A stretch of 64,000 nucleotides of DNA, taken from Methanocaldococcus lauensis (GTDB taxonomy: Archaea > AGJL01 > Methanococci > Methanococcales > Methanocaldococcaceae). Both the position numbers and the translations under genes were made by a program. Within the stretch, counting starts at the first letter, position 1, and each line of letters starts with the position of its first letter. Under the pieces are notes generated by a model. The model saw only the letters and a program-made list of their open reading frames with translations. It made no database searches and was not told the DNA's origin. Shown here in pieces: positions 7,544-24,647 of this stretch. Location of the stretch: contig NZ_LR792632.1 of assembly GCF_902827225.1 (NCBI RefSeq), forward strand, positions 639,030 to 703,029, read 5' to 3'.

Positions 7544-7721
7544 ATGAACTCTTCAATATAGAGAATAAGATAAAGGAAATTTTATCAATTATAATGGAAG
7601 AACCTAATTTTATTATATTATATTTGGACCAATAACTAGTGATAAGAATACCTTAATTAATGAGGTAATAAACAATAGGTTAGACAAAAATAAAGTATAT
7701 TGTATTTTATATAAATCTTAG
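7544..7721 (+). pseudogene. 5' remnant of an archaeal-type P-loop ATPase gene
   Basis: No open frame survives, but two adjacent frames read ELFNIENKIKEILSIIMEEPN and then FGPITSDKNTLINEVINN, RLDKNKVYCILYKS. This is the start of the archaeal ATPase family (pfam archaeal_ATPase), whose members begin with a REKEI-like segment, then a YGPxxSGKT P-loop, then IN..I. Here the P-loop glycine-lysine-threonine has decayed to SDKNT. Frameshifts lie just after the ATG at 7544 and near 7620. The homology ends where the truncated tnpB begins, so most of the gene was lost in a rearrangement. Recognition is by eye and moderately certain. Confidence 0.6.
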
Positions 7722-8355
7722 AGGGTTTGTAGCAGTTACTTAGTTTTTGTAGCATAATTCGTTTAGGAGATTTTTTATAAATTGATTTTAATTTATCAAT
7801 GATAATATCATAAACCTCTTTAATTCTATGGAGTTCGGATAAATCAACTCTAATCCATCCTTCAATTGGATGATATATATCGAGAGATTTTAGATTGCTA
7901 TAAACTCCGACAATTATTTCTATAATCGAATGGTCTATAGATTGTTTGAAAGTTAGATAAGCAGAGTTTTCCTTCAAAATAATTTCTCCAATCTCCCAAT
8001 CTTTAACCTTATCGAAAAACCATTCATCTTTAATGTTTAAAATTAAATATTCCTTTCTCGGCTTAATAGTAATTTTAATTTCTCCTTTTTCTTTATTGTA
8101 TTTTATTAAGGTTGTTTTCACTCTAACGAATGGTCTTTTAAATATCACCTTAGTTCTTTTTCTCAATCCCTTTAAATAATTGGATTTCCAACAATCCATT
8201 GTTGAATAAGCGACTTTAATAGTCGCATCGACATAATGGAGAGCATAATTCCAACCGTTTAATAATCTTCTCCTTAACACCCTCTTAAAATCTTTATCTT
8301 TGGGAATTTCTGGGATTAACCGAAACGGTAGAGTAGTATTTATAATTATTTCCAA
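7722..8355 (-). pseudogene. Truncated, inactive IS605-type tnpB
   Basis: The reverse strand encodes the N-terminal ~210 residues of a TnpB-type protein of the kind common in Methanocaldococcus (MEIIINTTLPFRLIPEIPKD, then KRPFVRVKTTLIKY and IKPRKEYLILNIKDEWFF). The frame reaches SNLKSLDIYHP and SELHRIKEVYDIIID, then after KKSPKRI runs into unrelated sequence at 7722-7757 and stops at 7657. The RuvC-I motif reads VGVYSNL, so the first catalytic Asp (usual GVDSN) is replaced by Tyr. The rest of the nuclease, including the zinc ribbon and later acidic residues, is missing. No ribosome-binding site is obvious. Not functional as a nuclease. Confidence 0.85.
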
Positions 8356-8717
8356 CTTTATACCGATGTTTAACTATTCTCTCTTTCCATTGGATATTGT
8401 TCCAGATAATATCGACAGCAGTTTGAGATAGATTTAAAAATCGATTAGAAAATTATTTATATTATAATTGTGAGAAACTTTATATGCCAGAACGATTTGG
8501 TTGGGGATTTTATTCCTCATTTTATCACCGAAATTTTTATCTCTTTTTGTATAAGAATTATTTTACAAAGTATAAAAAGATTTCTTTTTTAACTGTCGAT
8601 AAATGAGTATCTTTGTCTATCTATGCCTATATATTTTTAAACAGTGTTAGATAGCAATTTCTTAATTTCTGTAACATATCACAGTATATAAATATTCAAT
8701 TTAATTATATTACTAAT
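8356..8717. other. Intergenic stretch upstream of the tnpB remnant
   Basis: About 360 bp of AT-rich sequence between the tnpB remnant and the structured repeat. I see no credible ORF, tRNA or strong inverted repeat. It may contain the left part of the degraded element, but nothing in it is recognisable. Confidence 0.5.
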
Positions 8718-8922
8718 TAACCGATGAGAGGGCTCTGCCTTCGAGGTTATTATAAATGCTTATAAATTTCATTTGAAGGGCCGTTTCCGTTCTACCCAAA
8801 GTCCAATGAACCTATAGCAGAGAGAATGGTATTCCCAATGAAACAGGGTTGAATATCACCCATTTCCATGGCCGTAAGTTATTATATGTTATAATACTCC
8901 ATGGAAATGGGAAACGGTAACC
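8718..8922 (+). repeat. Structured dispersed repeat, copy 1 (possible ncRNA)
   Basis: About 205 bp, locally GC-rich for this genome, matching the minus strand at 24132-24327 with long conserved blocks: ccgatgagagg-ctctgcc-ttcgagg at one end, then ccgttctaccca, caatgaacctat, gcagaga, and the hairpin cccatttccatgg...ccatggaaatggg at 8859-8911. The hairpin has a 13-bp stem. A long-range pairing ctctgc (8733-8738) with gcagag (8817-8822) is also possible. Copy 1 lacks the terminal block present next to copy 2. It ends about 50 bp before the SRP RNA gene on the same strand and overlaps that gene's promoter region. Could be a noncoding RNA or the end of a mobile element; strand is assigned to match copy 2 read on the minus strand. 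Confidence 0.75.
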
Positions 8923-8936
8923 ATTAACCATCATAA

Positions 8937-8947
8937 ACTATATAAAC
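8937..8947 (+). promoter_or_regulatory. TATA box of the SRP RNA gene
   Basis: The sequence actatataaac, preceded by cataa, is centred about 29 bp upstream of the predicted 5' end of the SRP RNA at 8971, the usual archaeal TATA spacing. Confidence 0.6.
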
Positions 8948-8970
8948 CTGATTATATTATAATATAAAGT

Positions 8971-9297
8971 TGGTGTGCATGGCTAGGCCGGGGGGTTGGG
9001 CGTCCCCTGTAACCCGAAATCGTCCTTATGCGGGGGCCGAAAACCTGGGGGCGGTATGTCCTCCAGTCTTCTCTCCACAGGTCTCTCGATGATGCCTCGT
9101 CCCGTGGGGCTCGGCGGTGGGGGAGCACCTTCTGTAGGGAAGGTGTAACCCCCTTTACCTGCCGAACCCCGCCAGGCCCGGAAGGGAGCAACGGTAGGCA
9201 GGACGTCGGCGCTCACGGGGTAAACGGGGTTGAGAAGAGACCTGTGGGTAGGAGGGGGCTGGAGGACATACCCACCCCAGGGAAGCCATGCACACCA
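8971..9297 (+). ncRNA. ffs: Signal recognition particle 7S RNA
   Basis: The RNA is closed by a perfect terminal helix: tggtgtgcatggct at 8971-8984 pairs with agccatgcacacca at 9284-9297, which is helix 1, a mark of archaeal SRP RNA. The Alu domain near the 5' end contains ggctaggccgggggg and cctgtaacccg. The S domain contains the near-universal helix 8 segment gccaggcccggaagggagca around 9170-9190, where SRP54 binds, and the asymmetric loop acggtaggcag. About 327 nt, a typical archaeal length. The block is very GC-rich against the surrounding AT-rich DNA. A T-run (ttttttatat) at 9300-9310 may be the terminator. Apparent ORFs across it are artefacts. Confidence 0.97.
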
Positions 9298-23444: not shown

Positions 23445-24095
23445 ATGGTGTTTAAAAATATTGGCCAAGATAAAAATATTGAGATTTTAAAAATCCCAAA
23501 AGAAAGAGTTGGTGTTTTAATCGGCAAAAAGGGAAGTGTTAAAAAAACAATTGAAAAAGAGTTGGGAGTTAAATTGGAAATAGATGAAGATGGAACTGTA
23601 ACTATTTACGGAACTGATGATCAGAGAGATCCATTAGCTGTTTGGAAAGCTAAGGATATTGTTAGAGCAATTGGAAGGGGATTTAATCCAGAAATCGCTT
23701 TAAAATTAGTTAGTGATGAGTATGTTTTAGAAGTTATAGATATAGAAAATTATGCAGGCTCAGAAAAGAGTTTAAGAAGACTAAAAGGAAGAGTTATTGG
23801 TAAAGAAGGAAAATCAAGAAGATATATTGAGGAATTAACAGGATCAAATGTATCTGTCTATGGAAAAACCGTTTCAATTGTTGGAGAGCATGACTCTGTA
23901 CAAATAGCAAAAGAGGCTGTTGAAATGCTTTTAAGAGGAGCATCTCATGCAAAAACTTTCAAATTCTTAGAAAGAGAGAGGCAGAAAATAAAGAGATCTA
24001 AATTTGAATTGTGGAAGAGAAGTGAAGTTGATGAGTTGTATGAAAAAATGAATCAAAATTATGATAATTATGAAAATGAAGATTTTAAAGACTGA
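23445..24095 (+). CDS. KH-domain RNA-binding protein (archaeal Dim2/Pno1-like)
   Basis: A 216-residue protein with two KH domains: KERVGVLIGKKGSVKKTIEK (GxxG = GKKG) near residue 25 and GRVIGKEGKSRRYIEELTGS (GKEG) near residue 115. A basic, helical C-terminal tail follows (FLERERQKIKRSKFELWKRS) ending in an Asn/Asp/Glu-rich stretch. Archaeal Dim2/Krr1-like proteins bind the 3' end of 16S rRNA during maturation, which fits its place behind aIF1A and Rio1. The stop at 24095 is immediately followed by the structured repeat copy 2. Confidence 0.93.
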   Translation: MVFKNIGQDKNIEILKIPKERVGVLIGKKGSVKKTIEKELGVKLEIDEDGTVTIYGTDDQRDPLAVWKAKDIVRAIGRGFNPEIALKLVSDEYVLEVIDIENYAGSEKSLRRLKGRVIGKEGKSRRYIEELTGSNVSVYGKTVSIVGEHDSVQIAKEAVEMLLRGASHAKTFKFLERERQKIKRSKFELWKRSEVDELYEKMNQNYDNYENEDFKD

Positions 24096-24098
24096 TAT

Positions 24099-24327
24099 CC
24101 TCTTCCACCTAAAGGGATGAAGATTCCCATAGGTACCACCGTTTCCCATTTCCATAGCATATTATAACATATAATATCTTACGGCTATGGAAATGGGCAG
24201 TCATCAACTCACAGATTCATCGAGAATACCAATATCTCTGCCATAGGTTCATTGACTTGGGTAGAACGGAGACAGCCCCATAAAAGGAATTTATATTGAC
24301 CTCGAAGGCAGAGTCCTCTCATCGGTT
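24099..24327 (-). repeat. Structured dispersed repeat, copy 2, with IS605-like end
   Basis: Read on the minus strand, 24327 to 24132 matches copy 1 at 8718-8922, in the opposite chromosomal orientation. The hairpin at 24145-24197 has a 14-bp stem cccatttccatagc...gctatggaaatggg. Compared with copy 1, stem pair G-C became A-T and an A-G mismatch became C-G, so base pairing is kept. ctctgcc (24236-24242) can pair with ggcagag (24307-24313). Beyond the shared part, 24099-24131 reads on the minus strand tacctatgggaatc...ccctttaggtggaagagg, resembling the end sequence downstream of the tnpB remnant at 44.5 kb (ctttaggtgaagag). It could be an ncRNA, an omegaRNA relic, or a transposon end. Confidence 0.75.
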
Positions 24328-24647
24328 ATATAACAATATTGTTCCACTGATATTTAGAAACTGCTACAAACCCTTATGAGTTCATTGAACTTCGATGAAC
24401 GGATACAACCTTCGAAGGTTTTTTATCAAAGTTATAAAGATATATTAACATTGTAATATATTTAAATATTTTATATTATTGTTATATTACAGAAAACAGA
24501 AATTAAAAACTATTTCGAACTCTTATGAAATAACAATTTTTAGCTGGGAGGAAACTATAAAAAAAATATTAAATTAAATAATATTTATTAAAAATCTATT
24601 AAAATAAGATTATATAAAAATACGATATAAAAATACGAGGTAGTAAA
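24328..24647. other. Intergenic region with 16-nt match to the tnpB scar and small hairpins
   Basis: aactgctacaaaccct at 24359-24374 is identical to the minus strand at 7722-7737, the junction where the truncated tnpB meets the ATPase remnant. Next come gttcat...atgaac (24380-24399) and the palindrome aaccttcgaaggtt at 24407-24420, followed by TTTT, which could act as a terminator on the plus strand. The rest is AT-rich and should contain the promoter of the thioredoxin reductase gene. No ORF seen. Confidence 0.55.

What the first reader, a model, noticed from the sequence alone, without database searches (positions are those of the whole stretch)
24099..24327. A two-copy structured repeat with compensatory base changes: candidate noncoding RNA family
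Seen: 24132-24327 (minus strand) and 8718-8922 (plus strand) share long blocks, including ccgatgagagg, ctctgccttcgagg, ccgttctaccca, caatgaacctat and a 53-nt hairpin. In the hairpin (24145-24197 versus 8859-8911), stem position 12 is A-T in one copy and G-C in the other, and position 14 is C-G in one and a mismatch in the other. The loop attataacatataat is identical. A second long-range pairing, ctctgcc with ggcagag, is possible in both copies. Inference: selection keeps the structure, so this is an expressed RNA or a single-strand DNA signal. Other copies probably exist elsewhere. GC-rich structured RNAs in AT-rich hyperthermophiles have been found before by GC screens (the hgc RNAs), so this might be one of them.
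Basis: partly seen in the sequence, partly recalled or inferred. Interest (0 to 1): 0.8.

Follow-up and report, generated by a model that had tools for sequence, protein, structure and literature searches.

The report
Stand-alone transposon guide-RNA genes
The repeated structured sequence is a stripped-down IS607-type transposon that has lost its protein genes but kept its ends, a promoter-like box and the guide-RNA part of its TnpB nuclease, so this heat-loving archaeon probably carries about 15 stand-alone transposon guide-RNA genes, each aimed at its own insertion site.

Summary
In detail: two copies (8712-8917 +; 24139-24334 -) match end to end, with the compensatory change described. There are 15 copies in this genome and more in seven other Methanococcales genomes. 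The RNA reading is mostly right, but the identity is different. Long copies run straight out of a tnpB gene: the conserved 5' block encodes ADERALPLR beside the TnpB zinc ribbon, and the 53-nt hairpin is the transposon's right end. The structure is therefore a TnpB omegaRNA scaffold, and the variable sequence after GGGAAACGG is its guide. The window copies are non-autonomous (MITE-like) IS607 elements: a left end carrying an archaeal TATA box, fused to the omegaRNA and right end, inserted after (A)GGG. It is not Rfam HgcC, but copy B sits inside a broken HgcC unit, and HgcC units here have the same architecture with IS605-type ends, so that orphan RNA is probably also a solo omegaRNA. Expression, TnpB binding and targeting are untested. 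The cognate TnpB in this species has lost RuvC-I, so guides may be idle, serve incoming TnpB, or guide a nuclease-dead protein.

The parts
8647..8711 (+). Copy A: left end of the non-autonomous element (left boundary approximate; diverged), with TATA box TATAAATA at 8687-8694
   Evidence: Shared with the left ends of other copies and of autonomous tnpB elements in G001
8712..8917 (+). Copy A: omegaRNA scaffold region, from the block CCGATGAGAGGGCTCTGCCTTCGAGG to the right-end terminus GGGAAACGG
   Evidence: Covariance model 190.5 bits, E 1.6e-51; alignment A2
8859..8911 (+). Copy A: right-end hairpin, 14-bp stem in the consensus
   Evidence: Helix 6 of the consensus structure
8918..8937 (+). 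Copy A: predicted guide TAACCATTAACCATCATAAA (host flank just 3' of the right end)
   Evidence: Variable sequence after the conserved end; found only at its own locus
24335..24370 (-). Copy B: left end (TTTGTAGCAGTTTCTAAATATCAG...), TATA-like TAAATAT beginning at 24356
24371..24375 (-). Copy B: AAGGG at the left flank, the putative target-adjacent motif
   Evidence: AGGG precedes 27 of 40 recognisable left ends
24139..24334 (-). Copy B: omegaRNA scaffold region ending GGGAAACGG
   Evidence: Covariance model 178.6 bits, E 3.6e-48
24145..24197 (-).
   Evidence: helix 6
24119..24138 (-). Copy B: predicted guide TGGTACCTATGGGAATCTTC
24093..24138 (-). 3' half of an HgcC (RF00062) unit interrupted by element B
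   Evidence: Uninterrupted HgcC at the same place beside the KH gene in G005 contig C255 (L239), 89% identity across the right flank; SG1 keeps HgcC sequence on both sides of the element
24377..24435 (-). Remnant of an older copy of the same omegaRNA in the left flank of B
   Evidence: 61 nt at 79% identity to copy L007

Best explanation
Each copy is a non-autonomous (MITE-like) derivative of an IS607-family transposon (serine TnpA + TnpB). Internal deletion removed tnpA and most of tnpB and joined the left end, which carries the tnpB promoter, to the 3' tnpB segment and right end that encode the TnpB guide RNA (omegaRNA/reRNA). Shown by sequence: identity of the parts, ends, insertion motif, conserved structure and co-occurrence with one TnpB family. 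Inferred: (1) transcription from the left-end TATA box starts at about ATTAACCGATGAG and gives a ~200-nt scaffold running into ~16-20 nt of flank as guide (about 0.65); (2) the RNA loads a TnpB of this family in trans, from another copy or an incoming element, and directs it to the uninserted allele (AGGG motif + guide), favouring retention of the element (about 0.35, and only in genomes with an intact TnpB); (3) mobility was supplied in trans by an IS607 TnpA. In this genome the only TnpB copies of this family are broken, so copies A and B are at present probably expressed but idle, or serve a nuclease-dead TnpB.
For: Long copies continue from tnpB...CPNCGNRLSQLYKLADERALPLRLMYCFDCGFYADRD..., where ADERALPLR is encoded by the conserved block. 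TnpB identity: Pfam PF07282 in L100, L098 and L022; best solved relative TnpB-like L79. A serine resolvase lies directly upstream of tnpB in G009, with relics of both in G000. Autonomous elements L099/L100 have the same left end with ATATAAATA and the same GGGAAACGG right end. Empty sites for the tnpB copy L008/L022 in three relatives, with no target duplication. AGGG before 27 of 40 left ends, like the published IS607 TnpB motifs AGGAG/GAGGG (PMC11061315). Structure: 92.3% of cells paired, 60 double-change cells against 23.3 +/- 3.7 shuffled; solos alone 39 against 16.2 +/- 2.9; SG1 copies not used to define it keep 521 of 571 pairs. The RNA occurs in 8 of 36 Methanococcales genomes: the seven with strong family-3 TnpB matches, plus SG1, whose tnpB was read. 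Guides match only their own site.
Against: No transcript data for this organism. Several solos (L005, L006, L034, L011, L012) have lost the TATA box and the M. jannaschii solos have it about 20 nt further away. Between two strains of the species the RNA region is less conserved (90%) than the flanks (96-98%), so individual copies are not under strict sequence constraint; gene conversion between copies is likely. The cognate TnpB in this species lacks RuvC-I. The published IS607 reRNA lies outside the coding sequence (PMC11061315), whereas here it overlaps the end of tnpB.
Confidence: 0.82

Rival explanations
1. Only a MITE: the conserved structure is kept as DNA ends needed for transposition, and any RNA is incidental.
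For: The ends are those of an autonomous element; the copies mark insertions and rearrangement breakpoints. The RNA region diverges faster than the flanks.
Against: Helices far inside the right end (5' block, columns 156-196) covary and are kept in solos; the solos keep a 5' block some 150 bp from the right end while deleting the zinc-finger segment between. IS607 ends need no long palindromes as far as I know.
Confidence: 0.25
2. A host-adopted noncoding RNA family unrelated to guide function.
For: Multi-copy, G+C-richer than the genome (39-40% against 28.8% for the window), structured, with a promoter-like box.
Against: Strict co-occurrence with one TnpB family and derivation from its 3' end; each copy is followed by unique flank; no Rfam family reaches threshold.
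Confidence: 0.06
3. Degenerate tnpB pseudogenes: chance remnants with conservation inherited from the coding sequence.
For: Some copies (L011, L012, L015) are clearly decayed, and the broken tnpB of L008/L022 is one of the copies.
Against: Solos lack the reading frame yet keep covarying pairs and the same left-end/RNA junction within ~10 nt in several lineages; near-identical recent solos in G001 and M. jannaschii show that the short form itself multiplies.
Confidence: 0.12

Closest known systems
TnpB omegaRNA/reRNA of IS200/IS605 and IS607 elements
   Same: Lies at the 3' end of tnpB and the right end; structured scaffold followed directly by a guide taken from the flank; motif at the left flank
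   Different: Here also present as solo copies without tnpB, with a left-end promoter joined to the scaffold; an IS607-type element whose RNA overlaps the tnpB coding end, unlike the RAGATH-18 reRNAs of gut bacteria
RAGATH-18-derived reRNAs of IS607 TnpB (PMC11061315)
   Same: Orphan structured RNA explained as guide RNA of IS607 TnpB; G-rich motif AGGAG/GAGGG
   Different: No Rfam match to RAGATH-18; archaeal; scaffold overlaps the coding sequence
HgcC (RF00062)
   Same: Multi-copy structured RNA of hyperthermophiles; in these genomes a unit with IS-type left end, TATA box, RNA, right-end hairpin and variable flank
   Different: Different sequence; ends are IS605-type (TNAC-CATTAATTG... and ...GGAGAGGAGGTCA); element B is inserted in an HgcC unit
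MITEs / PATEs of IS200/IS605/IS607
   Same: Short, no ORF, ends of an autonomous element, mobilised in trans
   Different: Retains the complete guide-RNA scaffold and a promoter
Stand-alone omegaRNAs of IscB in Ktedonobacter racemifer (from memory)
   Same: Many guide-RNA loci without an adjacent nuclease gene
   Different: IscB rather than TnpB; bacterial

Membership tests
TnpB omegaRNA (reRNA) | Encoded at the 3' end of a tnpB gene up to the right end | tested here: met
   L008, L040, L041, L036, L051, L054 and L037 run out of tnpB
TnpB omegaRNA (reRNA) | Conserved structured scaffold with covariation | tested here: met
TnpB omegaRNA (reRNA) | Variable guide begins exactly at the right-end boundary | tested here: met
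   Conservation stops at GGGAAACGG in nearly all copies; empty sites for one copy
TnpB omegaRNA (reRNA) | Transcribed, binds TnpB and directs cleavage | not testable with these tools
   Needs RNA-seq and biochemistry
IS607 family element | Serine recombinase TnpA next to TnpB | tested here: met
   In the parent: G009 C6 26871-27197 + 27239 onward; relics in G000 at 1005.1-1005.5 kb. The solos themselves carry no TnpA
IS607 family element | No target-site duplication, insertion at a GG core | tested here: met
   Empty sites AAAGG(G)-ATT in three relatives; GG before 32 of 40 left ends
MITE | No ORF, same ends as an autonomous element, multi-copy | tested here: met
HgcC RF00062 | Score at or above the gathering threshold of 50 bits | tested here: not met
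   24.2 bits on copy B only, largely from the HgcC remnant in its flank; no gathering hit in the window for either copy
RAGATH-18 reRNA | Match to the Rfam model | tested here: not met
   No gathering-level hit in the window, and not among the matches of the evalue-mode scan of copy B

The most novel reading that the evidence does not exclude
The dispersed solo omegaRNAs of this species work in trans with its RuvC-I-deleted TnpB (316 aa, open frame, two identical copies in strain SG1) as an RNA-guided DNA-binding, nuclease-dead system, so that a transposon has become a set of promoter-driven guide genes for one protein; HgcC is the parallel IS605 version.
Probability: 0.1. Interest if true: 0.85.

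Novelty: new variant of a known kind. Interest (0 to 1): 0.58.

Why it matters
It turns an unexplained repeat into about 15 candidate guide-RNA genes with predicted 5' ends, scaffolds, guides and targets in a hyperthermophile, with intact thermophilic TnpBs of the same family in relatives. It also gives a concrete explanation for HgcC, a northern-verified orphan archaeal RNA whose function was still called unresolved in 2017 (PMC5732400): in Thermococcus kodakarensis three HgcC RNAs start inside transposase genes in sense (PMC4247193), and in Methanocaldococcus HgcC sits between IS605-type ends. I found no paper in the library that makes this link. If solo omegaRNAs are active in trans, TnpB acts genome-wide on dispersed non-autonomous copies, which bears on how such elements persist.

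Tried and rejected
HgcC membership was rejected (score, and because the hit comes largely from the flank). An origin from the tnpB relic next to copy A (7657-8355) was rejected: it belongs to another TnpB family (L057/L058). The long-range pairing ctctgcc/ggcagag was not supported. No relatives were found in plasmids or by exact block pattern in viral contigs. Guides were checked for second targets in the genome: none convincing beyond their own site. A TnpB parent carrying the HgcC-encoded peptide was looked for in 36 Methanococcales genomes: only HgcC loci matched, so the parent of HgcC here is missing or lost. Strong purifying selection on each copy between strains was looked for and not seen.

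Full report
Observation. The two window copies are real and homologous over their whole length. A genome search finds 15 copies at 71-85% identity, and relatives hold more. A covariance model built from 30 copies (the two window copies included) gives 190.5 and 178.6 bits for them and finds the family in 8 of 36 Methanococcales genomes, in two genera only. One of these, G032, has the same copy coordinates as the named record LR792634.1 (Methanocaldococcus sp. SG1) and is marked as the same species as the window genome.

Identity. In the full alignment some copies contain some 50 extra bases that encode YCFDCGFYADRD, the second half of a TnpB zinc ribbon, and the conserved block CCGATGAGAGGGCTCTGCCTTCGAGG encodes ADERALPLR just before it. 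These copies are the 3' ends of tnpB genes: intact 421-440 aa proteins in G001 (two), G005, G009 and G015, broken in the window genome, in M. jannaschii (G008, recognised by its chromosome length) and in G012. The protein family is confirmed by Pfam PF07282 and by a solved TnpB-like relative. A serine resolvase lies directly upstream in G009, with relics of both genes in the window genome, so the parent is an IS607-type element. No Y1 transposase was found in the window genome.

Solo architecture. The short copies, including both in the window, share the left end of the autonomous elements (RGGG | TTTGAAACAGTTTCTTAGTTTTTGTAGCA...ATATAAATACTT) and their right end (long hairpin, GGGAAACGG |), with no reading frame. 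The TATA-like box starts 33-40 nt before CGATGAG in most solos, which would place transcription start at the 5' edge of the conserved block; several copies have lost it, and it lies farther upstream in the M. jannaschii solos. The left-end/RNA junction falls at the same place within about 10 nt in several lineages, while the deleted inner segment differs. A tree needs five label changes between solo and tnpB-linked copies, at least three forced by well-supported branches, so the solo form arose repeatedly or was spread by gene conversion.

Structure. For a six-helix structure 92.3% of cells pair; 60 cells have changes on both sides against 23.3 +/- 3.7 in shuffles, and the slid controls pair in 29-47%. 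Solos alone, free of coding constraint, give 39 against 16.2 +/- 2.9. SG1 copies, not used to define the structure but orthologous to some that were, keep 521 of 571 pairs.

Insertion. For the tnpB copy L008/L022, three relatives show the uninterrupted site with no duplication. AGGG precedes 27 of 40 recognisable left ends, against a background of 0.0017 per position; published IS607 TnpB motifs are AGGAG and GAGGG (PMC11061315). Predicted guides match only their own locus. At one site (L007) the element joins two GGG sites that lie about 400 bp apart in SG1, an adjacent deletion. Copies also mark exchanges of flanks between the two strains (B with L013, L014 with L011).

Copy B and HgcC. The weak HgcC hit on B (24.2 bits, gathering 50) comes largely from its right flank. 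In G005 an uninterrupted HgcC stands at this place beside the KH-domain gene, and in SG1 the element has HgcC sequence on both sides. So B went into an HgcC unit at TAGTAGGG|TG, and later lost its left HgcC flank by exchange with another copy. True HgcC copies are elsewhere. Their units have ends like an autonomous IS605 element of G001: 52 nt at 86.5% identity for the left end, 33 nt at 87.9% for the right-end hairpin, a TATA box about 25 nt before the RNA, and variable flank after GGTCA. In T. kodakarensis three HgcC RNAs start inside transposase genes in sense (PMC4247193), and the function was called unresolved in 2017 (PMC5732400). I infer that HgcC is also a TnpB omegaRNA, often solo. 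Its parental TnpB was not found in this order.

Mechanism and limits. Shown: element anatomy, derivation from tnpB, insertion motif, structure. Inferred: transcription, TnpB loading, targeting of the empty site. The cognate TnpB of this species lacks RuvC-I: a clean 316-aa frame in two SG1 copies, and 260 aa with a further 62-bp deletion in the window genome. Between strains the RNA region is 90.1% identical and the flanks 96.4-97.7%, which fits gene conversion among copies and argues against strict constraint on each copy. The guides may therefore be idle now, serve incoming TnpBs, or guide a nuclease-dead protein.

Verdict. A real structured RNA family, explained as stand-alone guide-RNA genes of a non-autonomous IS607 element; a new variant of a known kind.

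Noticed in passing
L221 2382-2510, L222, L219, L220, L223-L229; reference IS605 element L131/L215: Rfam HgcC units in Methanocaldococcus lie between IS605-type left and right ends and carry a TATA box, so HgcC looks like a solo omegaRNA; about five ~290-bp IS605 solos with another omegaRNA occur in G001.
   Followed up: partly
L111, L114 (SG1); L022 4222-5004 (-): TnpB of the same family with a clean in-frame deletion of RuvC-I; two SG1 copies encode the identical 316-aa protein, a candidate nuclease-dead TnpB.
   Followed up: partly
L057, L058, L087, L122, L124: A second TnpB family carries Q in place of the last RuvC aspartate (NRQ/DRQ instead of DRD) in several species; L058 also has Y for the first aspartate. 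Possibly nuclease-dead or with a moved active site.
   Followed up: no
window 7657-8355 (-): 232-aa relic of that second TnpB family (also with the D to Y change) beside copy A; no relevant Pfam hit by itself.
   Followed up: partly
window 8918-8976: Copy A ends 59 bp upstream of the SRP RNA gene (8976-9292), next to its promoter.
   Followed up: no
L110, L113, L232, L233 versus L027, L028, L031, L025: Copies lie at rearrangement breakpoints between two strains of the species, with reciprocal exchange of flanks.
   Followed up: partly
L007 1443-1727; L231: The insertion joins two GGG sites about 400 bp apart in the other strain, removing the DNA between them (adjacent deletion).
   Followed up: yes
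L102 3488-4132 (+): In G012 the tnpB of this family is interrupted by a gene resembling a DDE-type transposase.
   Followed up: no
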